DNA of 64,000 bases from Sulfuracidifex tepidarius. Its GTDB lineage: Archaea; Thermoproteota; Thermoprotei_A; Sulfolobales; Sulfolobaceae. This document shows, piece by piece, positions 3,432-57,953 of the stretch (positions are counted from its first letter, which is position 1; every line of letters starts with the position of its first letter). Both the position numbers and the translations under genes were made by a program. The DNA lies in contig NZ_AP018929.1 in NCBI RefSeq assembly GCF_008326425.1, positions 186,001-250,000 on the forward strand, read 5' to 3'. The notes under the pieces are model-generated. The model made no database searches and was not told the origin of the DNA. It saw nothing but the letters and a program-made list of their open reading frames with translations.

Positions 3432-4151
3432 ATGGTAAAGATCTGTCCCAGATGTGGCTATCCAAACGATGACAGCTTTTCGTACTGTCAGAGATGTGGA
3501 TACAATCTCAAGAGGAGGAGTCTGAGCGAAAATGAAAAGAACCTTCTAAGGGGATTTAGATCATTTAGTATTATAAATTTGGTATCATTGATCTACCTTT
3601 CCGTGACTTTAGGTCTAGCTTATTTACTGGATAAAGGGGTCTTCTTCAACGACTTCTACTCTTTTCTGGGTTTCCTTGGAGCAGTCGCTGTAGGTACTAT
3701 TTTACTGTTTATTTCAGTGATGAAGTTAAGGAAAGGATATTCCTCTGTGATGAGAGACAACTTAAAGTATAAAATACCTTATCTAGGAACTACCATATTC
3801 ATTATATCTTTCCTGTTCATAATTGTCTTTTCGGTGTTTTTCCTGTCTACCTCTGTCATGGGCCTCTTCATTCCCTCATCCACCATACCTTTCGCAACCT
3901 TGTCTGTAATGGGCTTGTTTGTAATAGGATCTACTCTTTCACTTTTTCTTGGGATTTTTAGGGCATATGAGGAATTTAACGACAAAGTATTTCTATTATC
4001 GTCCTCTGGGTTCATCGTGTCTACTGTCATGTCTTGCGTAGCTCCTTTCTATCCAATCCTTTTGATCCCGTTATGGCTCGTTTATTTGATTTCTGTCACG
4101 TTGCTTTATGCAGCTAGTGATTTCAATCTTTCCTTAAATAGAGAAAACTAA
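3432..4151 (+). CDS. Zinc-ribbon membrane protein, paralogue of the preceding gene
   Basis: An upstream ATG exists at 3396, but the start is placed at ATG 3432. A TATA-like TTTAAAAA lies about 27 bases before it, and the zinc ribbon (ICPRCGYPNDDSFSYCQRCGY) then sits at the N-terminus exactly as in the neighbouring protein. The 239 residues continue with a short basic segment (LKRRSL) and about five or six membrane helices. The function is unknown. The tandem arrangement suggests duplication, and the two may form a membrane complex, but nothing in the sequence shows which process they serve. Confidence 0.55.
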   Translation: MVKICPRCGYPNDDSFSYCQRCGYNLKRRSLSENEKNLLRGFRSFSIINLVSLIYLSVTLGLAYLLDKGVFFNDFYSFLGFLGAVAVGTILLFISVMKLRKGYSSVMRDNLKYKIPYLGTTIFIISFLFIIVFSVFFLSTSVMGLFIPSSTIPFATLSVMGLFVIGSTLSLFLGIFRAYEEFNDKVFLLSSSGFIVSTVMSCVAPFYPILLIPLWLVYLISVTLLYAASDFNLSLNREN

Positions 4152-4438
4152 AAATCTCTCTAGCAAGCACAAAAGAAAGAACCCTCTGTGACAAGCTTTA
4201 AAAAAGATAAGAGGTTCAAGAGATGTATATAAGAATTTTACATTAAATTATGAAATAAATTAAAATAATAAGATATCAAAAGGGGTCTCTATAAATTTAT
4301 CATGTAATTGTAGATCCTAATCTATATATATCGCAATTAACATTTATCAAGTCATTTATAGAGAAATGAACGAACATGAGCTAAAAATTAAACCTTTCTC
4401 TAGATAACGTTTTTTATACCAATGACTTGGACTTGCTT

Positions 4439-4930
4439 ATGGAATTAGAAGATCTTCTAAAGAGGGGAGAGAAAGGAAAGATTCTAAGCATGAACCCTCG
4501 AGAAATAGTGCCTAGACTGATCCAACTTTTATCGTCAAACGACAAAGACGTAAAACACGCCTCTTGGGAGGTAATACAGGAGATGATCGAAAAAGGAAGT
4601 TTTAATGATAAAGAGACATTCCTCTCCTTACTCTGCTATCCAGACGAGGGTAGTAGGTATAGAGTATGGAATCTTGTACCTAAGGTGCTAAACAACATGA
4701 TTAGTGAAGGGGAGCTATTAAGTCGAGCGGATTGCCTTTCCCAACTACTTAAATCAAATAACCTTGAGGTTAGGGCATTAGCTTGGTATCAGACCCTTCC
4801 ACCGTTATTACATGTTTTAAGGAAAATTCCATGTAGTATCATTAACTATTGTGAATCAATAGGGGGAGAATGGAAGGAGCTGGTATCAGAGAGTTGTAAC
4901 GAAGTCAGGAAGGTATGTAGCGAGAATTAG
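4439..4930 (+). CDS. HEAT-repeat-like protein, possibly shortened by an in-frame stop
   Basis: 163 residues if it starts at ATG 4439, which has a TATA-like TTTTTATA centred about 26 bases upstream; the TTG at 4427 would lie too close to that box. The sequence is all-helical, with repeated Leu-rich helix pairs (PRLIQLLSSNDKDVKHASWEVI; DCLSQLLKSNNLEVRALAW), as in HEAT or armadillo-like scaffolds. Such proteins bind other proteins, and the partner is unknown. After the TAG at 4928-4930 the same frame stays open for 46 more codons to TAA at 5069-5071, so the gene may once have encoded about 210 residues. Confidence 0.5.
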   Translation: MELEDLLKRGEKGKILSMNPREIVPRLIQLLSSNDKDVKHASWEVIQEMIEKGSFNDKETFLSLLCYPDEGSRYRVWNLVPKVLNNMISEGELLSRADCLSQLLKSNNLEVRALAWYQTLPPLLHVLRKIPCSIINYCESIGGEWKELVSESCNEVRKVCSEN

Positions 4931-5164
4931 GTCAAAGCAATAGACCAAGTAGTTTCCTCCTCAGAGAGGTTCGTAAATTTCTTCCTTTTTTGGAAAGAGG
5001 AATGGAGAAATCCAGGCAACCTCGTGGTTTCTTTAGACTCTTGCCAGAAAGCTTTCGTTTCCCTTATCTAAAGTAGAGCCTAATTACACCCGTATTGTGC
5101 TTATCACTCTTTTAATCCTTTGCCTTTCTGTAGAATTGCTTTTAACCAGCATGTTTAAACATAT

Positions 5165-6469
5165 ATGATGGAATTTCCTGAAAATTTCAAGTTCGGTTGG
5201 TCTCAATCCGGGTTCCAATTTGAAATGGGCGGAGGTAGTCCTCTGGATCAGAACTCGGATTGGTTCAAGTGGGTCCACGACAAGGAAAACATAATCTCAG
5301 GATTGGTGAGCGGAGACTTACCTGAGAACGGAGTAGGCTACTTGAAAAATTACGCTTTCTTCCATCAGGAAGCTAAAAGGATGGGTCTAAACGCTGTCAG
5401 AGTCGGGGTAGAATGGTCTAGGTTGTTCCCGGAAAAGGGAAGTTTCAATGAAGATGTAATAAACACCTATGGACAGATTCTGAAGGACCTGAAAGACAAG
5501 GGATTCCACGTCATTCTCAACTTATATCATTGGTCTATGCCGTTATGGTTACACGATCCAATAATGGTCAGGAAGGGGAAGTTTGAGAGGTCTGGTTGGC
5601 TCATGGAAAGCACGTTAGACCACTTCCAGGAATTCGTGGAGAGTTCCGTAAAGAGCTTAGACGACCTTGTTGATGAGTACGTGATCGTGAATGAGCCGAA
5701 CGTAATTTGGAAGGCCGGTTTCGTGTTAACGAGAATGGGTTTCCCTCCGTCTTATCTGGACTTCGAGAAGGCTGAGATAGTCAAGGAAAACTTGATGAAG
5801 GCATGCAACTTAGCTTACAAGTCCATTAAGGGGATCACGAAGAAGAAAGTGGGAATCGTGTACGCTATGGCTGACATCCAAGGTGATGAGGAAGTAAAGG
5901 AAAAGGCGAAAATGGAGGAGGAGTTTTCCTTCCTAGACGGAGTTAATTGGGATTGGCTAGGAGTGAACTATTACACCAGAATAGTAGTTGAACCTATTGG
6001 AGAGAATTTCACCGTTAAGAGGGGACTAGGTATGTATGCACAAGGTTATTCAACTAGCCTCGAGGGAAGGGTTGTTTCTGATAATGGATGGGAAGTATAC
6101 CCTGAGGGGATCAGAAACGTCCTTCTTGAGTCGTGGAGGAGGTACGGTAAGGAGATTTACGTTACAGAAAACGGTGTCTCAGATTCTAAGGATATGATAA
6201 GACCATGGTACATAGTGTCCCACCTTTACTATGTAAGGAAGGCGATGGGAGAAGGAGTTCCTGTTAAAGGGTATCTTCACTGGTCTCTAGTGGACAATTA
6301 CGAATGGTCTTCGGGATTTTCCCAACGTTTCGGTCTCATGGGAATGGACTTCAAGAGCAGGAAAGCTTGGTGGAGGCCGTCAGCTTATCTTTATAAAGAG
6401 ATTGCTACATCTAGGGAAATTGACAAGAGAATGCTAAATTATTTAAATCTGTCTGATTCCGTCGAATGA
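5165..6469 (+). CDS. Family 1 glycoside hydrolase (LacS-like beta-glycosidase)
   Basis: 434 residues, closely similar in motif order to Sulfolobus beta-glycosidase LacS: a FGWSQSGFQFEMG start, LVSGDLPENG, ILNLYHW, the acid/base Glu in VNEPNV (about residue 177), the nucleophile Glu in YVTENG (about residue 335) and YLHWSLVDNYEWSSGF. LacS is about 489 residues, so this version has shorter loops, mainly after the WSRLFP motif (near residue 90), where LacS carries a long insertion. It should hydrolyse beta-linked glucosides or galactosides in the cytoplasm. A CTTTTAA box about 25 bases upstream supports a leaderless start at 5165 or at the second ATG, 5168. It appears to be a single-gene unit. 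Confidence 0.9.
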   Translation: MMEFPENFKFGWSQSGFQFEMGGGSPLDQNSDWFKWVHDKENIISGLVSGDLPENGVGYLKNYAFFHQEAKRMGLNAVRVGVEWSRLFPEKGSFNEDVINTYGQILKDLKDKGFHVILNLYHWSMPLWLHDPIMVRKGKFERSGWLMESTLDHFQEFVESSVKSLDDLVDEYVIVNEPNVIWKAGFVLTRMGFPPSYLDFEKAEIVKENLMKACNLAYKSIKGITKKKVGIVYAMADIQGDEEVKEKAKMEEEFSFLDGVNWDWLGVNYYTRIVVEPIGENFTVKRGLGMYAQGYSTSLEGRVVSDNGWEVYPEGIRNVLLESWRRYGKEIYVTENGVSDSKDMIRPWYIVSHLYYVRKAMGEGVPVKGYLHWSLVDNYEWSSGFSQRFGLMGMDFKSRKAWWRPSAYLYKEIATSREIDKRMLNYLNLSDSVE

Positions 6470-6646
6470 TCTATGACCAGAAACAGTAGCCTGCCTTAGA
6501 TTAATGAGAACTAGAATTGGTGGGAAAATGTGAAGTCTAGATAATATAAAATCTAAGAAAATGTTTTTAGCCTGACGAAGGAAAAAATACTCTCTTTATC
6601 TTCTCCAAATAGCGCAAATTCAGATAATTTAGAAAATCTTGAAATT

Positions 6647-7006
6647 TTATTCAGCTTTTATGTTAGCTTTTATCTTGTCCACTAGGTCCTTCGGTGGGTT
6701 GTTGATACCATGACTGAGCTTAGCGTGAAGAGCTATTTGTTGCATTAACTCGTCTTCATTTCCAGCATTCTTTATCTCGAAACCACAGTTCTGCCCTATA
6801 CTTGCACACGAAAACGAATACTTTCCTGATTTCTTTATGTTAGCTTTTATCTTGTCCACTAGGTCCTTCGGTGGGTTGTTGATACCATGACTGCTCTTTG
6901 CATGAACCGTAATTTGTTGCAGGAGCTCGTCCTCAGAAGAGGCATTAACTATCTCGAAACCACAGTTCTGCCCTATACTTGCACACGAAAACGAATACTT
7001 TGCCAT
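6647..7006 (-). CDS. Tandem-duplicated DUF1059 protein
   Basis: 119 residues made of two copies of a DUF1059 small-protein domain, each about 58 residues: (K)YSFSCASIGQNCGFEI, then EDEL, then HAK-SHGIN, then KDLVDKIKANIK. The conserved Cys and His residues (CxxxxxNC, HA, HG) fit the proposed metal binding of the family. The two halves are joined by a short KKSG linker. DNA identity between the halves is concentrated at both ends of the unit, with a diverged middle. A third, single-domain copy starts on the opposite strand at 7083, sharing the intergenic promoter region. The function is unknown. Confidence 0.8.
   Translation of the reverse strand: MAKYSFSCASIGQNCGFEIVNASSEDELLQQITVHAKSSHGINNPPKDLVDKIKANIKKSGKYSFSCASIGQNCGFEIKNAGNEDELMQQIALHAKLSHGINNPPKDLVDKIKANIKAE
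6657..7001. repeat. 177-base direct duplication inside the DUF1059 gene
   Basis: Two blocks recur at a spacing of 176-177 bases. Bases 6657-6716 match 6834-6893 over 60 bases, and 6773-6824 match 6950-7001 over 52 bases; both appear identical by eye. The stretch between them differs at many positions. This is an intragenic duplication of one domain (59 codons). It is either recent with selection on the middle, or kept uniform at its ends by gene conversion. Confidence 0.85.
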
Positions 7007-7082
7007 ATGAATGATTGTTCACTTGATATATTAAGACCTCGTTAGAACTTTTCTGACACTTCCTTATTTGTTTTCGCATTTA

Positions 7083-7292
7083 ATGAAGATCATGCAGTTA
7101 TTTGGTAAGAAAAAGAAACTATATTTCTCGTGTTCAAAGATAGGAATGAACTGTGGGTTTGAAGTGAAAGGAGCATCGAACGAAGATGAGCTAATGGAGA
7201 TATTGAAGATTCACGCCTCGAAAGCTCACGGAATGACATCTATACCACAGAGTACAATAGACGCAATAAAGAGTAACGTGGAAAAGAAATAG
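7083..7292 (+). CDS. Single-domain DUF1059 protein
   Basis: About 69 residues from ATG 7083; ATG 7092 is an alternative. The TTG at 7068 is less likely because it falls at the T-rich promoter stretch. After a basic N-terminus (GKKKK) comes one DUF1059 domain: LYFSCSKIGMNCGFEV, NEDELMEIL, HASKAHGM, IPQSTIDAIKSNV. The Cys/His pattern matches both halves of the divergent gene at 6647-7006. These two genes face away from each other across about 75 bases and are probably duplicates sharing a bidirectional promoter. The role is unknown. Confidence 0.75.
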   Translation: MKIMQLFGKKKKLYFSCSKIGMNCGFEVKGASNEDELMEILKIHASKAHGMTSIPQSTIDAIKSNVEKK

Positions 7293-7407
7293 AATTATCT
7301 TACCTTTTTCTAAAAGGGTCACTTTGAGAAATTAATGGAATAGAAAGGTGTACAAACTCTACGTTTAAATCAATGTTTTTTATTTAAGTTTCCTATTATT
7401 TATTCCG

Positions 7408-7749
7408 ATGGAAGTAAATGATTTTTTAAGACACATTTCATTGATGAGGGACAACGTTTACTCTACCCTCTTTGGATTAGAAATAAATAGAGCAAAACTA
7501 CGTTATATTCAAGAGAATTGGAGTTCCTTGGTTAGGGCTTTAGAGCGGACAGACAGAATTTCACTGGAATTACAGCTAGACTTCCAGACCCCTATAGGGA
7601 GAGTTACCGGGTCTTTCATGTCACACGTTTCTATAAGGGAAGGAATGCCTCCAGAGGAAGGGTTGATGGAGGTCCTAGAAAGGACAAAGAGGATAATAAA
7701 GATGGATGAGGACTTCCTCCGCAGGACCTACATGAAGGATTACATTTAG
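7408..7749 (+). CDS. Hypothetical protein
   Basis: 113 residues from ATG 7408 with a TATA-like TTTTTTATTTAAG about 27 bases upstream. It is predicted mostly helical at both ends (MEVNDFLRHISLMRD; LMEVLERTKRIIKMDEDFLRR), with a beta-like centre (ISLELQLDFQTPIGRVTGSFMSHVSI). No membrane segment, signal peptide or metal motif is visible. I do not recognise the family. It lies alone before the sulerythrin operon and is separated from it by a fresh promoter. Confidence 0.5.
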   Translation: MEVNDFLRHISLMRDNVYSTLFGLEINRAKLRYIQENWSSLVRALERTDRISLELQLDFQTPIGRVTGSFMSHVSIREGMPPEEGLMEVLERTKRIIKMDEDFLRRTYMKDYI

Positions 7750-7830
7750 AAGATTCTAACTATTAACTAATAGTAACTTTATTCTAGAAACGTTTATATA
7801 TTAAGGCGAGATATTCATCTTAAGATAAAA

Positions 7831-8262
7831 ATGAAAAGCATGAAAGGTACACAAACGGAGAAGAACTTCAAAGAAGGTTTTATAGGAGAATCAATGGCTA
7901 ACAGGAGGTATCTTTATTTCGCAAAGAGAGCCGATGAGGAAGGGTATCCTGAAGTAGCCGGGTTGCTGAGAAGTATATCTGAGGGAGAGACCGCTCACGC
8001 TTTCGGACACTTGGACTTCATAAGACAAGGCGACTCAGTAGACCCCGCAACTGGGAAACCGATCAAGACAATAGAGGAGATGCTGGAGTCAGCAGTAGCA
8101 GGAGAGACCTACGAGTTCACACAGATGTACCCTGGCTTCGCTAAGACAGCTAGAGAGGAAGGTTTCGATGAGGCAGCTGAGTGGTTCGAAACCTTAGCAA
8201 GGGCTGAGAAAAGCCACGCAGAGAAGTTCACCAACATCCTTAAGCAAGTAAGGGGAGAGTAA
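7831..8262 (+). CDS. Sulerythrin-type rubrerythrin (no rubredoxin domain)
   Basis: 143 residues, the length of Sulfolobus sulerythrin, without the C-terminal rubredoxin domain of classical rubrerythrin. The four-helix bundle carries the di-metal Glu/His ligands: [34 protein letters not shown] and [12 protein letters not shown]. The family reduces peroxide and protects against oxidative stress in the cytoplasm. The start at 7831 has a GTTTATATA box about 30 bases upstream and matches the N-terminus I recall for the family (KGTxT). The next gene starts 3 bases after its stop, so it heads a three-gene operon with an Fe-S oxidoreductase and a DUF3501 protein. Confidence 0.9.
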
Positions 8263-8265
8263 CAT

Positions 8266-9447
8266 TTGTATTCGTTAAATAAAGACAATCCATCCTTTTT
8301 TGATAAAAATAAACTTCAGTCGGAGTTCATCCGTCAAGCTTCTGTCTGTCATGGTTGCAGAAGGTGCTTCAATTACTGTCCCGCTTTCCCTACACTCTTT
8401 AAGTTCACTGATTCTAAGGGGGTGAAAGCCTTAACTTTGGACGATCTTTACACAATAGCTTCAGAGTGTTTCCATTGTAACATGTGTTACGTCAACTGCC
8501 CTTTTACTCCTCCTAATGATCTAAACATGGACTTTCCCCACCTCTTGGAGTGGGGGTGGCTACTCATGAGGAAAGAGAGAGGGATACCGCTGAAGGAGAG
8601 GCTTTATGAGATGCTCGACTTCGTCGGGATAGCTAGGCCAATTGCGCCTGCTATGGTCAATTTCCTTGAGAGCGAGGACGCTCCCAAACTCAGAGTGTCG
8701 GAGAGAAGCTTCAAGCAGTCCTTCAGTGCTCCTAAGGTACCAAATCCCGTGGCGAAGGTGATCCTGTTTCCAACCTGTTTAGTCGATAATTTCTTCGTCG
8801 AGATAGGAAAGGACTTAGTTGAAGTCTACTCCAAACTGGGAATCCAAGTAGAGGTGGGTGACTTCGTCTGTTGTGGTGCTCCGATGCTAGACGCAGGAGA
8901 CGCCGACGCGCTCAAGAAGAACGCTGAAAGGAACTATTCCAAGATCAAGGATTACCTTGAGAAGGGATACGACGTGGTGTCTCCAGTGCCCACTTGTACC
9001 CTCATGTTGTCCAAGGAATACCAATACGTGTTAGACAAGGAACAGATCAAGGTTTACGATGCCATGGAGTACCTAATGAAGTTGAAGAAGGAAGGCAAAA
9101 TAAAGCTGGACTATAAGCTACCCTTGTCAGCTTTCTATCACGCTCCGTGCCACCTGAAATACTTAGGAGTTGGCTATCCTGGAGTTCAGACTTTAAGGAT
9201 GATCAAAACGAAAGTGGAGCTTGCAGATAAAGGATGTTCTGGAATAGACGGGGGATGGGGTTTAAGGAACTACTCTAAGGCTAAGGTTGTCGGTTCAAAG
9301 ATGATGGAGGCATTCTCGCAGAGCACGGCCGACGTCTTTGTGACTGAGTGCCCCTTGGCGGGAATGCAGATAGAGAAAGCGTCAGGAAAGAAGCCTTTAC
9401 ACCCGATCCAGATGCTCAAGAGGGCGATGGAAAATGATAAGAGTTGA
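8266..9447 (+). CDS. Fe-S oxidoreductase, GlpC/HdrD-like
   Basis: 393 residues with a TTG start 3 bases after the rubrerythrin stop. The N-terminal part has two 4Fe-4S ferredoxin motifs: [12 protein letters not shown] (about 28-39) and [12 protein letters not shown] (about 69-80). Two cysteine-rich (CCG-type) domains follow: FPTCLVDNF with [12 protein letters not shown], then [11 protein letters not shown] with CSGIDGGWG and TECPLAG. This is the architecture of the GlpC or HdrD electron-transfer subunit. The order rubrerythrin / this protein / DUF3501 recurs in bacteria and archaea. It probably feeds electrons to sulerythrin, but that is inferred from gene order only. Confidence 0.85.
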
Positions 9448-9994
9448 AGAAGTACTCCCCTGGAAAGAATACGAACCCAAGAGGAGTGAAAGGATATCTA
9501 AGGCAGTAGAGATCAAGAAGGAGAGGAGGATAGAGCTGGGTGACAGGATGTCGATCCTGTTCGAGAACAAGGATACAGTCCTGCACCAGATTCAGGAGAT
9601 GGTCTATCTGGACAGGTTGAGCAGCAAGGAGGACATCGAAAAGGAAATAGAGGTATACAAGAGTTGGCTACCTTGTGGGGGTAAAGTTAAGGCAACCCTC
9701 TACATTTACGCTAAGGATAATGCAGATCTCTTGAACGTTTTCAAGACCCTACCTAAGATATACGACTCCATTTTCCTGAAGGTAGGAGACAAGGTAATTC
9801 AGGGAGACCCTGAGAACGGCATAGACCAAGGAGAAGCGTTCTCTACATTACAACCCCTGACCTTCGATTTGCAGGGAGAGAGGTCATCCGACATAGAGAT
9901 TCACGTTATACATGAGAACTATAAATTCAAGACCAAGATTCCAGAAACACTGGCTAAGAAGCTAATCGATGAAGCGTACGAGAAGTGCGGCTGA
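9434..9994 (+). CDS. DUF3501 family protein
   Basis: 186 residues. The start ATG lies 14 bases inside the end of the Fe-S oxidoreductase gene, so the two are translationally coupled. The family signature is clear: [17 protein letters not shown], then IKKERRIELGDRMSILFENKDTVLHQIQEMVYLDRL. The rest has beta-rich stretches. The family has no known biochemical function but is constantly found beside rubrerythrin and GlpC-like genes, as here. It is soluble, with no signal or membrane segment. Confidence 0.85.
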   Translation: MIRVEEVLPWKEYEPKRSERISKAVEIKKERRIELGDRMSILFENKDTVLHQIQEMVYLDRLSSKEDIEKEIEVYKSWLPCGGKVKATLYIYAKDNADLLNVFKTLPKIYDSIFLKVGDKVIQGDPENGIDQGEAFSTLQPLTFDLQGERSSDIEIHVIHENYKFKTKIPETLAKKLIDEAYEKCG

Positions 9995-10306
9995 CACTCT
10001 ACAAAGATTTCAAGAGCAGAGAAAGTAAAGTAAATGGTAAAATCTTTTTTAAACCTTTTTATAGAAATTATATTAAAACGACGCTGGGTTCTCTTGGTCA
10101 CATGAAATAATAGGTGAACTATTCTACTCTGTTTTTAAGTTACAGCGCATTATACACGCTTTTTATTAAGAATACATTTAATTTTAGAGAAAGAATCAAA
10201 AAGAACTCTGTTTCTAAATTCCTTTCTTCCTTACCTCTCCTTCATTTCATGAGAAATAAAAAAGATATATCGAAAAGCTTTTTAGGTATACCTTAAATCT
10301 CCTTAT
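9995..10306. other. Intergenic region upstream of MFS gene
   Basis: About 310 bases, A/T-rich. A TATA-like AGCTTTTTAGG near 10275-10285 fits the promoter of the MFS gene at 10307. A 60-codon open frame at 10114-10296 has low-complexity Phe/Lys/Ser composition and no family features, so it is not called. No repeat or RNA is seen. Confidence 0.4.
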
Positions 10307-11749
10307 ATGGATGTGAAAACAAGAACGTTAATTCTACTCTCTGCTATGCTCCTTATAGTGAATTACGTTGAGACCATGGTTGTTCCAGCTTTACCTACAA
10401 TCGAGAGGGACTTCTCAATCTCCGCTACTCTAGCAGGCTGGGTAACTTCTGCTTACATGATTGTAGCAGCTGCAGCTTCTCCTCTGATGGGAAAGTTAGC
10501 TGATACTTACGGTAAAAAGAAAATATATACTATCGCTGTAGGGTTTTACATTCTCGCTGTGGCGATGGCAGGTTTCTCTCCCAACATTTGGTTCCTGCTG
10601 ATAGCTAGAGGGATTCAAGGCATAGGCTTCTCCATGTTCCCTATCTCCATAGCCTTCATCACGGACTTATATCCCAGGGAAAGGGTAGCCTTCGCTCAAT
10701 CTCTGTTGAGTGCAATGATAGGAATAGGACCGGCTCTTGGACTTCTCTTGGGGTCTTACGTTGTTGAGGATCTCGGATGGCCTTATGCTTTCCACACTGC
10801 CGCGATTCTCTCATTGATACTCTTCGCTCTCTCCCTGATGTATTTACCTCACACTGGGAACAGGAAGAAGGAGAAGGTGGACTACGTAGGAGCGTCCCTG
10901 ATAGGAGCAGGAACTGTGATGACGTTAGTATATGTAACTGAAGGACCTACCTTGGGATGGACGTCGATTGAGAACTTCGGCTTCTTGTTCCTAGGCTTGA
11001 TACTTTACGTAGCTTTCGTGTTCTTCGAGAGGAGAGTGAAGGAACCTTTACTGAGACTCGATCTTTTCAAGATAAGGAACTTCTCAGTAGCGAATCTGGT
11101 TGGTTTAGTTTCAGGAATAGGTATGTTCATGGTCTTCATCTTCCTGGTGTACTACGCTCAGATTCCGTCTCCCTATGGGCTAGGACTTACCATAATACAG
11201 TCTGGACTCATAATGTCGCCAGTAGCCTTGGGTATGATAATCTTCGGCCCTATCATGGGTAAGTTAATGCCTAAGATAGGTCCTAAGCCTATAATAGTAG
11301 CTGGAGCCACTCTATCGATCATATCTTACCTGATGCTCTGGAAGTTCAGAAGCACTCCTACTGAATTGCTGGCAGACGGGTTCGTTTCTTCCATTGGTTT
11401 AGTAGCGGTTATCCTCCCATTAGTTAACATAGTGGCATTATCCCTCCCTGACGAGTACAGAACTACTGGACTGGGAATGAACACTCTGCTGAGAACCCTA
11501 GGTGGATCTGTAGGTCCTGTAGTAGCAACAGCAATGATGGAGACCTATCAGGATCCTATAGTGATGCTCATGAATGGACAGCCGATGGTATTAGGCTTCG
11601 TCCCGTCGTCTCTTGCCTTCGATTACATCTCGTTCTTCGGAGTCGGCATCATGGTGATCACCCTGATCATTTCCCTATTCCTCAAGAATTATACCTTCAG
11701 TGCTAGGAAGGTACAGAGGCAGGAGAAAGAAGAAACAGTTACGGCCTAA
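10307..11749 (+). CDS. MFS drug/proton antiporter, DHA2 (EmrB/QacA-like), about 14 helices
   Basis: 480 residues with the features of 14-helix DHA2 exporters: N-terminal [18 protein letters not shown] (motif D1-like), GWVTSAYMI, the loop 2-3 motif [11 protein letters not shown], then [15 protein letters not shown] and [19 protein letters not shown] (motif C). It should export a toxic organic compound or metabolite in exchange for protons. The C-terminus is a charged cytoplasmic tail ([15 protein letters not shown]). It is monocistronic with its own TATA box. The substrate cannot be read from the sequence. Confidence 0.85.
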
Positions 11750-53032: not shown

Positions 53033-53752
53033 TTACAAAGACATGGCAGCTATCATTTCTCTCTCGCTCAAGCTACCCAATAACGTTCTCGGATCAACCA
53101 CGGGCAGGAAACCTATGTTGTGTTCCACCATGATCCTGCGGGCTGTCTCCAGTGTTGAATCTGGGGTTACTTTAAAAGGGGAGACAGTCATGAACCCTTC
53201 AACCTTCACCTCAAGTGATCCCTTGCTTAACATAGCTCTGGAAATGTCTCTCACTGAGATTATACCTACGGGGAGGCTGTCCTCAACTATTACGGCATGT
53301 CTTACCCACTTCTTCTTCATGAAATCGACTATTTCCTTTATTGTTGCGTCCTTGCCCGCTATAATAGGATCTATGTTCATTACGTCGCCTACATTGCTGG
53401 AAGGGGGTTTACAATACCTTATCAGGTCTCTCTCAGTCACTATCCCTTCAACTTCAACTCCGTCACCTACTAGGAGGGAGCCCAAAGCTTGTGATGTCAT
53501 GATCCTACATGCCTCTTTCAATGTTGCCGTAGGCATGACGAACTGAACGTCCTTGGATGCCACATCACCGACCTTCTTATTCAGGTCTCCGTTGTAGACT
53601 ATGTCCCTGATTGTGAGTATACCAGTTAACTTTCCGTTCCTCACCAGCAGCCTTCTCATGTTCATTCTTAACATTATATCTAGGGCTACTTTCAGAGTAG
53701 TCTCCTCTGAAACGCTTGCTACCTCCTTGGTCATTACCTCTGAAACTTTCAT
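53033..53752 (-). CDS. Four-CBS-domain protein
   Basis: 239 residues made of four CBS domains in a row (about 1-55, 60-115, 120-175, 178-238), each with the MT-x-x(V/P)-x-x-V beta start and the G(I/S)-(L/V)-(T/S)-x-RD end (GILTIRDIV, GIVTERDLI, GIISVRDIS, GSLSEREMI). Two Bateman modules would form a disc that binds adenosine nucleotides. There is no enzyme domain, so it is a sensor or regulator. Its ATG overlaps the stop of a 45-residue cysteine protein gene, implying joint translation. Confidence 0.85.
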   Translation of the reverse strand: MKVSEVMTKEVASVSEETTLKVALDIMLRMNMRRLLVRNGKLTGILTIRDIVYNGDLNKKVGDVASKDVQFVMPTATLKEACRIMTSQALGSLLVGDGVEVEGIVTERDLIRYCKPPSSNVGDVMNIDPIIAGKDATIKEIVDFMKKKWVRHAVIVEDSLPVGIISVRDISRAMLSKGSLEVKVEGFMTVSPFKVTPDSTLETARRIMVEHNIGFLPVVDPRTLLGSLSEREMIAAMSL

Positions 53753-53886
53753 GGTTTCACTATCTGGAAACCCTTACACCTTTGAAGACATTCGGTCAGG
53801 GTTACGGTTGATCCCCACTTGCCGTCTTTATTTACCAGACACTCCTGTATGCATGGGTCCTCTATTTTTGCTTCTACCACTTTCAA
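53749..53886 (-). CDS. Small four-cysteine protein gene upstream of the four-CBS gene
   Basis: 45 residues starting at TTG 53886 (GTG 53880 is an alternative) and ending in TGA that overlaps the CBS gene's ATG (ATGA). The Cys pattern is CIQEC...CLQRC (two Cx3C pairs about 20 residues apart), a likely metal site or disulfide hairpin. The sequence begins MKVVEAKIEDPCIQECLVNK and ends CKGFQIVKP. The overlap, the cysteine symmetry and the absence of a competing gene support it. The family is not recognised. It may act with the CBS sensor, by inference from position. Confidence 0.6.
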   Translation of the reverse strand: MKVVEAKIEDPCIQECLVNKDGKWGSTVTLTECLQRCKGFQIVKP

Positions 53887-53950
53887 TCACCAATTCATTA
53901 TGAGGTTTACAAAGGAAAAAATTTTTCTCATTCATTTTATATAGATAAAC

Positions 53951-54403
53951 ATGGATAGTGTTAAAGTGAAAGTAGGTAATTTAGAGTTAGACGTGGCAGG
54001 AAAAGTCACGCTTGACAAAGAATACACGGTAGTGAACGTTCCTGACGCGGACGAATACAAGGGATTTCCTCCATCATGGGAGTTCGTCAAGTCACATATG
54101 CTTACGTGGAGACCTTACTTTAAGGGCAAAATAATGGAAGTTGGAGAGGACAGGATACCTATCCTTGGGGACTTCATACTGAACCTAACAGAGGAGATGC
54201 ACGACTTCCTCCTGGCAATTTACGATACCTTCAAAGCAGGCAGGCCTAGCATAGAGACAAACATAAGCACTGTAATAACCGAGCAGTTGAACGAAGTAGA
54301 GCGAAAGCTAGGAAGGTCATTAACGTCAGACGAAAGGACCGAGATGTATGTAAGGTATGGCGTGGAGGCAGCTATCCTTCGGGACATAGGTGTTATAAAT
54401 TGA
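53951..54403 (+). CDS. Hypothetical protein, first gene of OsmC cluster
   Basis: 150 residues from ATG 53951. The N-terminal half is beta-rich (VKVKVGNLELDVAGKVTLDKEYTVV), the second half helical (NLTEEMHDFLLAIYDTFKAG, EVERKLGRSLTSDERTEMYVRYGVEAAI). No membrane helix or Cys motif is visible. Its TGA overlaps the OsmC start by one base (TGATG), so the two are translated together. I do not recognise the family. A link to peroxide or thiol metabolism is inferred from the OsmC neighbour only. Confidence 0.55.
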   Translation: MDSVKVKVGNLELDVAGKVTLDKEYTVVNVPDADEYKGFPPSWEFVKSHMLTWRPYFKGKIMEVGEDRIPILGDFILNLTEEMHDFLLAIYDTFKAGRPSIETNISTVITEQLNEVERKLGRSLTSDERTEMYVRYGVEAAILRDIGVIN

Positions 54404-54810
54404 TGACATTCACGGCTGAAGGGAAGGTTGAGGGAGACCATGTAAGTGTATGTGCAGGCGGAAGCGAGATAAAGATAGGTCTAATGGGATCTGATTACCC
54501 AACTCCGGAGGAGGTGTTACTTGCCTCTTCCCTTTCATGTCTGATGCTCACAGTGGTTTACGTCGCAAGGGAGAAGGGAGTTAAGTTGGACGAAGTGAGC
54601 GGATGCATACAAGGCGACATGGACCCGCGAGGTTTTCAGGGAGAGCCCGGGATACCTCCAGGAGTGCTGGAGGTGAGGTATAACGTGAGAGTAAAGGGTA
54701 ATGACGCTAGAATTAAGGAAATAATTGAAGAGTCTGAGAGGAGGTGCCCCATGAAGGACACATTAGTGAGGAGTGTTAAGGTGAAGGTCAACTGGGATAT
54801 TGAAAGTTGA
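54403..54810 (+). CDS. OsmC/Ohr-family protein
   Basis: 135 residues from ATG 54403. OsmC fold: beta-rich N-terminus (FTAEGKVEGDHVSVCAGG), then PTPEEVLLASSLSCLMLTVVYVAREKG with the first catalytic Cys, and IIEESERRCPMKDTL with the second Cys. The family reduces organic hydroperoxides through the two cysteines. It is shorter than Ohr and sits in an operon after the hypothetical gene at 53951. Confidence 0.85.
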   Translation: MTFTAEGKVEGDHVSVCAGGSEIKIGLMGSDYPTPEEVLLASSLSCLMLTVVYVAREKGVKLDEVSGCIQGDMDPRGFQGEPGIPPGVLEVRYNVRVKGNDARIKEIIEESERRCPMKDTLVRSVKVKVNWDIES

Positions 54811-54850: not shown

Positions 54851-55177
54851 ATGAGTGAAGAACTTGTAAAACCAGGAGAGAGGGCAGTAGAGGAAATGGA
54901 GGGATACATTAGAGATTTGCTAGACGTCATGAATGATATTTTAGCTAAGAACAAGAGAGCGTTAAGCGACGCGGGGATATCTTCCAGGCTAGGAGTTCTC
55001 TTAGGTGTGATGACTATGCATCGTTACAATCCCGATCTTTTCATGCAGTACTGGAACGAGTTCAAGTCCCTCGTGGAGAAATGCAAGGCAGTACCCACAG
55101 TGAAGGACAGGGTAAGTAACGAGGTAGATCCGCTCATAGCTCAAATAGAAGCACTTAAGAGCGGTGCTGGATTATAA
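54851..55177 (+). CDS. Small helical hypothetical protein
   Basis: 108 residues. AGGTGA is found 5-10 bases before ATG 54851, a good Shine-Dalgarno match, and a TTTTTTAAA stretch is found about 35 bases upstream. It is all-helical and acidic (ERAVEEMEGYIRDLLDVMNDILAKNKRAL; LFMQYWNEFKSLVEKC), with one Cys. No known domain is recognised. Its last 23 bases overlap the end of the convergent gene on the minus strand. Confidence 0.5.
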   Translation: MSEELVKPGERAVEEMEGYIRDLLDVMNDILAKNKRALSDAGISSRLGVLLGVMTMHRYNPDLFMQYWNEFKSLVEKCKAVPTVKDRVSNEVDPLIAQIEALKSGAGL

Positions 55178-55793
55178 GTGACGGTAACTGGTTTTCTGCA
55201 TTCGCTAGATGTTTTTCAATCTCTCCTTTGGCTAGTGAGGAGAAAGGTCCAGAATACCATTCCTTTATCTTGATATCGCATTTTTCCTTGGATATGCCGA
55301 AAATCAGGAAATCGAATCCAAACGACACCTTGGCTATTGCGATCTTCTGAGAGGCGTTGTACTTGACGGTGAAGGAGGTCTCCTTCAAGGATACGGTGTT
55401 CACGGTGAGAGGTGTATCCCAACTTAAAACCCATTTTATTCTGAGTGTGTACGTGTTCTCTCCCATCCTGGTCACCGACTTTATTTGAGGGATGATTGCA
55501 ATTAGGATAGTAGGATCCTTTATTACGTTGTACGCTAACTTGGGATCTGTGTCAACCTCTATCAGGGTTGCCTTTGAAACTGCGTCTTTCATCTTAGGGT
55601 AAACTGTTATCTTTAAGACGTCCCCTTCTTTTACCTCGTTCTTCTCCATTTCCAACTCCTCAGCGATCTCCTCAACTATTCCCTTCAGTTTATCATCAAC
55701 TAAGAATGTAGCGGATTCGCTTTCATTCAGAACCTTCATTATGGTTATCTTCGCCATTACTTCGTTAAAGTTAAGTAGATTATACTCAGTCAT
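55155..55793 (-). CDS. SRPBCC/CoxG-like hypothetical protein
   Basis: 212 residues. The start at 55793 has a TTTAATATT stretch about 30 bases upstream; a start at 55757 is the alternative. The middle (IEVDTDPKLAYNVIKDPTILIAIIPQIKSVTRMGENTYTLRIKWVLSWDTPL, FGFDFLIFGISKEKCDIKI) resembles the SRPBCC/CoxG-like ligand-binding fold, with a helix-grip end (SSLAKGEIEKHLANAENQL). About 60 N-terminal residues are a separate helical/beta segment. The function is unknown. It converges on and overlaps the gene at 54851 by 23 bases. Confidence 0.5.
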   Translation of the reverse strand: MTEYNLLNFNEVMAKITIMKVLNESESATFLVDDKLKGIVEEIAEELEMEKNEVKEGDVLKITVYPKMKDAVSKATLIEVDTDPKLAYNVIKDPTILIAIIPQIKSVTRMGENTYTLRIKWVLSWDTPLTVNTVSLKETSFTVKYNASQKIAIAKVSFGFDFLIFGISKEKCDIKIKEWYSGPFSSLAKGEIEKHLANAENQLPSLIIQHRS

Positions 55794-56410: not shown

Positions 56411-57505
56411 CTAAATTATTTCCTGTATTTCTGGTTTGTTCATCAATTCGTTGAAGACCTTCACTAAGTCCTCTTGAGTAAACCCGAATATTACGGGCTT
56501 CTCCTTTTCAAAGAACTCCTTTATCTTCGTTTCGACCATGGAAGGAACAGTCCCCTTCAGGAAGTCCTCTAACCTCTCGAGGAAACCTGGGGGTGACATG
56601 ACGAAGAAATCTCCGGAGATAGATACTTCATCGATCACCTTGTTGAAGACCCTTACGGTAACCCTCAGGAGTTTCCTAGCCTTGTAATCTATGTGACATA
56701 AAGCCAGGGAAGAGTTTATCTTAACACATCTCTCAGTCCTCAAATCTGGATGTCTGTTGTCCTTGAAGTATACCCAGCTCTCGTTCACCTTCTCTATAGC
56801 AAGCTTTTCCCACTCCTCTATCTCCTCAGGGGTAAGGTTTGAGTCCTCAAACTTCACGTTCAGCTCTCTCTCAAATTCTTCCTTGATCTTTCTGGAGATC
56901 TCTTCCTTCGGCGGAACGTATCCTATTTCGTCCTTGATAGACGTTAACCACTCCCTCATGTCTTTCGCCATTTTATCCCTGAATTTCTCTGACGGTACTC
57001 TTATGCACTTGCTCATGAGTTCCACGTCCAAGTTCAGGAGTATGTTTCCAGTCACGACCACTGCCTTTCCTCTCGACATTGCACCATTTCCACTTATCTT
57101 CTTTCCTTTCACTACTATGTCCTGGTCTTTTAACGTAGCCTCTATGCCGTAGCTTCTTATTACGTTTACTATGGGAGTGAGGAACTTCTGATATAGTGCA
57201 GAGGGGGTTGAGGGAGCGTCTTCCTGCCTGACTACAAGGAAGAAGTCCTGCTCCCCTGGAGTTATGACTACAGTTCCTCCTCCTAAATCCCTCCTGACAA
57301 CCGGTATTCCCATTTTCTTAGTGTACTCAAGGTCAACCTCAAGCCAAACCTCTTGATGAACTCCTACGTTAACGAAAGGTTCCTTAACGCCAAAAAGAAG
57401 TAGGGTGTTCTTGCCTCCACCAGAAACGTAATCAGCTACGGAAACGAAGGAAGTGACCATGTGGTAGCCGTCTTGTGGAGGCAGGTTAACATACCTCCAG
57501 CTCAT
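56411..57505 (-). CDS. Lipoate-protein ligase, fused LplA-LplB type
   Basis: 364 residues. The LplA catalytic core has the lipoyl-AMP site RRDLGGGTVVITPGEQDFFLVV (about 71-92), VGVHQEVW and DIVVKGKKISGNGAMSRGKAVVVTGNIL. About 130 C-terminal residues (from about 230) form an accessory domain (SSLALCHIDYKARKLLRVTVRVF), so this is a single-chain LplA(B), like the sLpl(AB) ligases linked to sulfur oxidation, rather than the two-gene LplA/LplB of Thermoplasma. The gene starts one base after the lipoyl carrier stop. It attaches lipoate to that carrier. Confidence 0.85.
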   Translation of the reverse strand: MSWRYVNLPPQDGYHMVTSFVSVADYVSGGGKNTLLLFGVKEPFVNVGVHQEVWLEVDLEYTKKMGIPVVRRDLGGGTVVITPGEQDFFLVVRQEDAPSTPSALYQKFLTPIVNVIRSYGIEATLKDQDIVVKGKKISGNGAMSRGKAVVVTGNILLNLDVELMSKCIRVPSEKFRDKMAKDMREWLTSIKDEIGYVPPKEEISRKIKEEFERELNVKFEDSNLTPEEIEEWEKLAIEKVNESWVYFKDNRHPDLRTERCVKINSSLALCHIDYKARKLLRVTVRVFNKVIDEVSISGDFFVMSPPGFLERLEDFLKGTVPSMVETKIKEFFEKEKPVIFGFTQEDLVKVFNELMNKPEIQEII

Positions 57506-57506
57506 C

Positions 57507-57953
57507 TTAGAGCCTCTTGCACTGGAGCTTCTCTCCGTTTATGATCTCACTCATTTTAGCTACTGCGTCTGATCCAGTCAGCAGCTGCTTTATTTCCTCT
57601 GGATTGCTCACCTTCATCTTGACTAACCATCCTTTTCCGTAAGGGTCTTGGTTAACTAGCACTGGACTCTTCTCGACTTCAGTGTTTGTTTCTATCACTT
57701 CCCCAGTGACAGGTGAAGGTACTGGTCCAGCCCACTTTCCACTTTCCATTGTAGAGACTGGTTTCCCTTTCTCTATCTTCATTCCCTTTTTCTTTATTCT
57801 GACCTTAACTACTTTACCTGCCATGGTCTGAGCCACGTCAGTTATTCCAACCAATATTGTATCTGAACCTTCTACCTTTGCCCACACCGTGTTCTTTCCC
57901 TCTATAAAATAATAGAGGTCCTCCGGGATCTCACAGTTTGAAACGTTTGCCAA
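57507..57953 (-). CDS. GcvH-like lipoyl carrier (candidate LbpA of sHdr sulfur oxidation)
   Basis: 148 residues with a TTG start and a TTTTATTAGA box about 27 bases upstream. It has the lipoyl domain: ITDVAQTMAGKVVKVRIKKKG, then the lipoyl Lys73 in TMESGKWAGPVPSPVTGEVIETN, as in glycine cleavage protein H. Two Cys near the ends (Cys7 and Cys145) are unusual for a plain GcvH and fit LbpA-type carriers of the heterodisulfide reductase-like sulfur oxidation system. No gcvT or gcvP gene is nearby; the only partner is the ligase one base downstream. Housekeeping GcvH is the alternative. Confidence 0.75.
   Translation of the reverse strand: MANVSNCEIPEDLYYFIEGKNTVWAKVEGSDTILVGITDVAQTMAGKVVKVRIKKKGMKIEKGKPVSTMESGKWAGPVPSPVTGEVIETNTEVEKSPVLVNQDPYGKGWLVKMKVSNPEEIKQLLTGSDAVAKMSEIINGEKLQCKRL

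What the first reader, a model, noticed from the sequence alone, without database searches (positions are those of the whole stretch)
53749..53886. Overlooked 45-residue four-cysteine protein overlapping the four-CBS gene
The frame ends in TGA that overlaps the CBS protein's ATG and holds two Cx3C pairs about 20 residues apart. It is too short for usual length cut-offs. Coupled translation with an adenosine-nucleotide sensor suggests a metal or redox co-sensor.
Basis: partly seen in the sequence, partly recalled or inferred. Interest (0 to 1): 0.6.

Follow-up and report, generated by a model that had tools for sequence, protein, structure and literature searches.

The report
Conserved tiny cysteine protein near sulfur-oxidation genes
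A 43-residue protein with four cysteines, easy to miss by length, is a real and strongly conserved gene of acid-loving hot-spring archaea; it sits beside genes of their lipoate-dependent sulfur-oxidation machinery and is probably a cysteine-stapled helical hairpin serving that system, not a metal sensor paired with the CBS protein.

Summary
The frame is a real gene; its likely start is GTG at 53880 (43 aa), behind a GGTGA motif shared by many relatives. It occurs in 30 of 31 Sulfolobaceae genomes (10 of 11 genera), with dN/dS mostly 0.05-0.14.

Of 17 four-CBS orthologues, 16 lie directly downstream of it, but 14 of 30 genomes keep the small gene without that neighbour. The constant neighbours are D150-OsmC-H108 (divergent) and lbpA-slpl, the lipoate module of sHdr sulfur oxidation; in the deepest lineage these are contiguous with hdrC1B1A-hyp-hdrC2B2.

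Seven genomes lack C1 and C4 together, while C2, C3 and a Trp are invariant. That fits a helical hairpin with C1-C4 and C2-C3 disulfides, as in small Tims, and disfavours a four-Cys metal site.

Best reading: an accessory disulfide-stapled hairpin of the Sulfolobaceae sHdr-LbpA locus, with the CBS protein as a lineage-specific add-on. Molecular activity is inferred; expression, disulfides and partners are untested.

The parts
53749..53880 (-).
   Evidence: 30/31 Sulfolobaceae; start position conserved; dN/dS mostly 0.05-0.14
53887..53891 (-). GGTGA ribosome-binding-like motif in front of SMALL
   Evidence: GGTG motif at the same place in g1, g3, g6, g7; not seen in g2, g5, g8, g9, g10, g11
53033..53752 (-). 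Four-CBS protein, 239 aa, overlapping SMALL by ATGA
   Evidence: PF00571, four stretches; 16 of 17 orthologues directly downstream of SMALL
53915..53927 (.). Palindrome-like GAAAAATTTTTTC (read on the minus strand) in the divergent SMALL/D150 spacer
   Evidence: Same element in spacers of g1, g7, g10; variant GTAAAGGTTTTTTCC in g6
53951..54403 (+). D150: Sulfolobaceae-specific protein of unknown family, divergent from SMALL
   Evidence: 31/31 Sulfolobaceae, none in 101 other genomes of the order; confident model, no PDB match
54400..54810 (+). OsmC/Ohr-family protein with two cysteines at the usual catalytic places
   Evidence: PF02566 E 6.7e-20; in 29 of 31 loci
54851..55177 (+). H108: small protein of unknown family
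   Evidence: In 28 of 31 loci
56411..57505 (-). sLpl-like lipoate-protein ligase
   Evidence: PF21948 and TIGR00545 matches; in 30 of 31 loci
57507..57953 (-). LbpA-like lipoate-binding (GcvH-like) protein with a Cys near each end and an ESGKW lysine
   Evidence: PF01597 E 8.2e-42; the two-Cys feature is described for LbpA in PMC6067878

Best explanation
SMALL is a conserved accessory protein of the Sulfolobaceae sHdr-LbpA (lipoate-dependent) sulfur-oxidation locus. It most likely folds as a short cytosolic helix-turn-helix hairpin, one CX3C per helix, stapled by C1-C4 and C2-C3 disulfides, the inner pair being the essential one. It most likely works as a small adaptor or stabilising subunit for a protein of the D150-OsmC-H108 / LbpA module. 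In a subset of genera it shares an operon with a four-CBS protein, which may add adenine-nucleotide control. Shown: gene, conservation, synteny, cysteine pattern. Inferred: disulfides, adaptor role, nucleotide control.
For: Homologues in 30/31 Sulfolobaceae, dN/dS mostly 0.05-0.14. Constant neighbours D150, OsmC, H108, LbpA, sLpl. In G021/G022 hdrC1-B1-A-hyp-hdrC2-B2-lbpA-slpl is followed by SMALL and D150-OsmC (domains). SMALL lies about 6 kb from sHdrB1 in g9 and g2, 16-18 kb in g8, g10, g11, and 43-75 kb in g6, g7, in line with the reported scattering of these genes in Sulfolobaceae (PMC6067878). C1 and C4 are both present in 23 and both absent in 7; C2, C3 and the Trp between them are invariant. 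AF2 puts one CX3C in each of two helices, residues 9-15 and 28-34. Cytosolic disulfides are common in thermophilic archaea (PMC3177088).
Against: Model confidence is low (pLDDT 60) and Foldseek finds nothing. The C1/C4 loss may be only one event, and the C-terminal tail was remodelled with it. G004 (HS-7) keeps the sHdr-lbpA-slpl operon with no detectable SMALL, so SMALL is not strictly required. In the window's own genome sHdr lies about 509 kb away. Every family genome searched has sHdr, so co-occurrence cannot be separated from ancestry. No expression data.
Confidence: 0.5

Rival explanations
1. The CBS co-sensor reading: SMALL and the four-CBS protein form one adenine-nucleotide plus redox/metal sensing unit, made by coupled translation.
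For: 16 of 17 CBS orthologues lie directly downstream, overlapping or 4 nt away, in five genera.
Against: 14 of 30 SMALL genomes have no linked CBS gene, including the basal g9 lineage; in G001 CBS is unlinked.
Confidence: 0.15
2. A four-Cys zinc (or other metal) site: SMALL is a metal-binding or metal-sensing mini-protein.
For: Reduced small Tims with the same twin CX3C bind zinc through all four Cys (PMC3759932). In g8 and g11 a His stands at the C4 position.
Against: Seven orthologues lack C1 and C4; G001 has neither Cys nor His at the C4 position, leaving two Cys.
Confidence: 0.12
3. A thiol relay: the invariant C2/C3 pair carries electrons or sulfane sulfur between LbpA dihydrolipoamide and OsmC or another partner.
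For: C2 and C3 are invariant; OsmC and LbpA are constant neighbours; Ohr of the same superfamily is reduced by lipoylated proteins (PMC5962072).
Against: No test of reactivity; a purely structural disulfide would give the same conservation. No known carrier family matches.
Confidence: 0.15
4. A leader peptide whose translation only controls the downstream gene.
For: It is short and overlaps the CBS start in the window.
Against: Amino acids are conserved while synonymous sites are highly diverged, and the gene persists with quite different genes, or none, directly downstream.
Confidence: 0.03

Closest known systems
sHdr-LbpA-sLpl sulfur-oxidation locus (Sulfolobaceae 'Group II' arrangement, PMC6067878)
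   Same: SMALL sits beside lbpA and slpl, and in the basal lineage beside the whole hdrC1B1A-hyp-hdrC2B2 operon.
   Different: I found no mention of a small four-Cys gene in the papers read; D150, OsmC and SMALL are outside the described core.
Mitochondrial small Tim proteins (twin CX3C; Tim9, Tim10, Tim13)
   Same: CX3C-spacer-CX3C layout; the C1-C4 and C2-C3 pairing known there fits the co-loss pattern; weak profile hit to Tim13 (E 0.041).
   Different: Much shorter helices, archaeal cytosol, no significant homology, and some orthologues lack C1/C4.
Plant alpha-hairpinins
   Same: Short four-Cys helix-loop-helix peptides with a fixed Cys motif (PMC11591084); that the motif is CX3C...CX3C is from memory.
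   Different: Plant defence peptides; homology neither tested nor expected.
Ohr/OsmC lipoyl-dependent peroxidases
   Same: A constant neighbour (OsmC) belongs to this superfamily, members of which can be reduced by lipoylated proteins.
   Different: SMALL itself is not a member.

Membership tests
sHdr-LbpA gene neighbourhood | Linkage to lbpA and slpl | tested here: met
   LbpA and sLpl within about 11 kb of SMALL in the loci examined
sHdr-LbpA gene neighbourhood | Linkage to hdrC1B1A-hyp-hdrC2B2 | tested here: met
   About 6 kb in g9 and g2; 16-75 kb in g6, g7, g8, g10, g11; but 292 and 509 kb in g1
sHdr-LbpA gene neighbourhood | Present in every genome that has sHdr | tested here: not met
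   G004 has sHdr-lbpA-slpl but no detectable SMALL; 30 of 31 have it
sHdr-LbpA gene neighbourhood | Functional need in sulfur oxidation | not testable with these tools
   Needs a deletion strain
Small Tim (zf-Tim10_DDP) | Significant match to the family profile | tested here: not met
   One of 27 members, at E 0.098 only
Small Tim (zf-Tim10_DDP) | Strictly conserved twin CX3C | tested here: not met
   23 of 30 keep all four Cys; 7 keep C2 and C3 only
Small Tim (zf-Tim10_DDP) | C1-C4 and C2-C3 disulfides in a helical hairpin | tested here: inconclusive
   Co-loss of C1 and C4 fits; model confidence low
Four-Cys metal site | All four ligands conserved | tested here: not met
   C1 and C4 absent in g2, g8, g11
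CBS co-sensor pair | SMALL always with a four-CBS gene | tested here: not met
   16 of 30 SMALL genomes have it linked
CBS co-sensor pair | Four-CBS gene always in a genome with SMALL | tested here: met
   16 of 17 orthologues directly downstream of SMALL; the 17th genome has both, unlinked

The most novel reading that the evidence does not exclude
SMALL is a new dedicated sulfur or disulfide relay of the sHdr pathway: its invariant C2/C3 pair passes sulfane sulfur or electrons between lipoyl-LbpA and an OsmC/D150 complex, and in some genera a four-CBS protein gates this by adenine-nucleotide level.
Probability: 0.1. Interest if true: 0.75.

Novelty: new variant of a known kind. Interest (0 to 1): 0.45.

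Why it matters
How the sHdr-LbpA system handles sulfur on lipoate is still being worked out, and in S. acidocaldarius the known cytoplasmic components alone did not give prolific sulfur oxidation (PMC11323534). A tiny conserved gene plus D150 and an OsmC protein, all held beside the lipoate module across the family, are concrete candidate parts that can be deleted and tagged. It also offers a cytosolic archaeal twin-CX3C-like hairpin in which natural orthologues have already dropped the outer cysteine pair.

Tried and rejected
Pfam and NCBIfam on SMALL: nothing significant. PDB profile search: only weak hits to mitochondrial twin-Cys hairpins, Tim13 and NDUS5 (E 0.02-0.1), taken as analogy, not homology. 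Foldseek with the SMALL and D150 models: nothing. The genome-contig scan with D150 returned only seven loci, useful for names only. A search for a separate two-Cys paralogue in four-Cys genomes gave essentially the known SMALL genes again. Chance ORF and leader peptide rejected by dN/dS and conservation.

Full report
Observation. Relatives' starts line up with the GTG at 53880, which follows GGTGATTGAAA; G025 has TTG and most other genera ATG at that place, in g1, g3, g6 and g7 just behind a GGTG motif. The probable product is 43 aa: MVEAKIEDPCIQECLVNKDGKWGSTVTLTECLQRCKGFQIVKP.

It is a gene. A plain protein search found it in 21 of 31 Sulfolobaceae genomes. A profile added divergent copies in g8, g11, g2 and g9, giving 30 of 31; only G004 (Sulfolobales archaeon HS-7, name) has none. 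Profile hits outside the family are weak and short. Between close pairs most changes are synonymous: window versus L025, 17.0 of 26.0 synonymous sites against 8.0 of 100.0 nonsynonymous, w 0.05; the other pairs with measurable dS lie at 0.06-0.14, one at 0.30.

Neighbours. Across loci from all 31 genomes, SMALL is divergent from D150 in every genome that has it except G001, with OsmC, H108, LbpA and sLpl close by in nearly all. D150 was found in 31 of 31 family genomes and in none of 101 other genomes of the order. Domain searches support OsmC, lipoate-protein ligase and GcvH-like LbpA. The window's LbpA has a Cys near each end, as described for sHdr LbpA proteins (PMC6067878). In G021 and G022, the deepest lineage on the tree, the order is HdrC1, HdrB1, HdrA, hyp, HdrC2, HdrB2, LbpA, sLpl, then SMALL on the other strand and D150-OsmC (Fer4, CCG and FAD domains). 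G001 also has SMALL about 6 kb from the sHdr operon. Elsewhere the distance from SMALL to sHdrB1 is 16-18 kb (g8, g10, g11), 43-75 kb (g6, g7) and 292-509 kb (g1). This agrees with the published statement that in Sulfolobaceae these genes are scattered over a wider region in several operons (PMC6067878). G004 keeps hdr-lbpA-slpl together but has D150 and OsmC elsewhere and no SMALL or H108 detected.

CBS. The four-CBS protein is a lineage-specific partner. Seventeen genomes hold a full-length orthologue at 45% identity or more; in 16 it lies directly downstream of SMALL, overlapping by 1-4 nt or 4 nt away. It is not next to SMALL in g7, g10, g5, g9, G011 and G001. So CBS nearly always accompanies SMALL, but SMALL often does without CBS.

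Cysteines. Among 30 sequences, 23 have all four; seven (g2, g8, g11) lack C1 and C4 together, and none lacks only one of them. C2, C3 and the Trp between them are invariant. On a five-protein tree rooted with g9, the two-Cys form appears in the well-supported g8+g11 clade and in G001, and g9 has four cysteines, so four is probably ancestral. Deep nodes of that tree are weakly supported, and the G001 tail resembles that of g8/g11, so this may be one or two events. Pairwise loss of the outer cysteines is what a C1-C4, C2-C3 stapled hairpin predicts, the topology of small Tims (PMC3759932). AlphaFold gives two short helices holding one CX3C each, at low confidence. A four-ligand metal site is hard to square with the two-Cys orthologues. 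Cytosolic disulfides are frequent in such archaea (PMC3177088).

Mechanism. The neighbourhood suggests work on thiol or lipoyl chemistry. OsmC relatives of the Ohr type are reduced by lipoylated proteins (PMC5962072), so OsmC beside LbpA is chemically sensible; that this OsmC does so is inference. The simplest role for SMALL is a rigid mini-adaptor for one of these proteins; a thiol relay is the more novel option. Neither was tested. D150 has a confident model (pLDDT 94) with no solved relative.

Organism labels. One search names G026, G003, G008, G005, G001, G011 and G004.

Noticed in passing
window 53951-54403: D150 is a Sulfolobaceae-only protein family next to the sulfur-oxidation lipoate module; confident predicted fold without any PDB match.
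   Followed up: partly
window 53915-53927: Palindrome-like GAAAAATTTTTTC in the divergent SMALL/D150 spacer, repeated in g7 and g10, with a distinct conserved GTAAAGGTTTTTTCC in g6; possible shared promoter or operator.
   Followed up: partly
L094 (G004), 3990-11192: HS-7 has a compact hdrC1B1A-hyp-hdrC2B2-lbpA-slpl operon but no SMALL or H108 detected, with D150 and OsmC dispersed.
   Followed up: yes
window 55155-55793: A 212-aa protein (weak CoxG-like match) convergent with H108 and overlapping its 3' end by 23 bp; kept in 10 loci.
   Followed up: no
window 7831-9447: By eye from the translations, a rubrerythrin-like protein followed by a CCG/HdrD-like iron-sulfur protein, separate from the sHdr operon of this genome.
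   Followed up: no
L081 (G021), 7954-8412: The deep-branching genome keeps an LbpA (73% identical to the window's). If it is Sulfodiicoccus acidophilus, as its size suggests from memory, this sits awkwardly with a published statement that two lipoate-binding proteins were lost there (PMC11323534).
   Followed up: no
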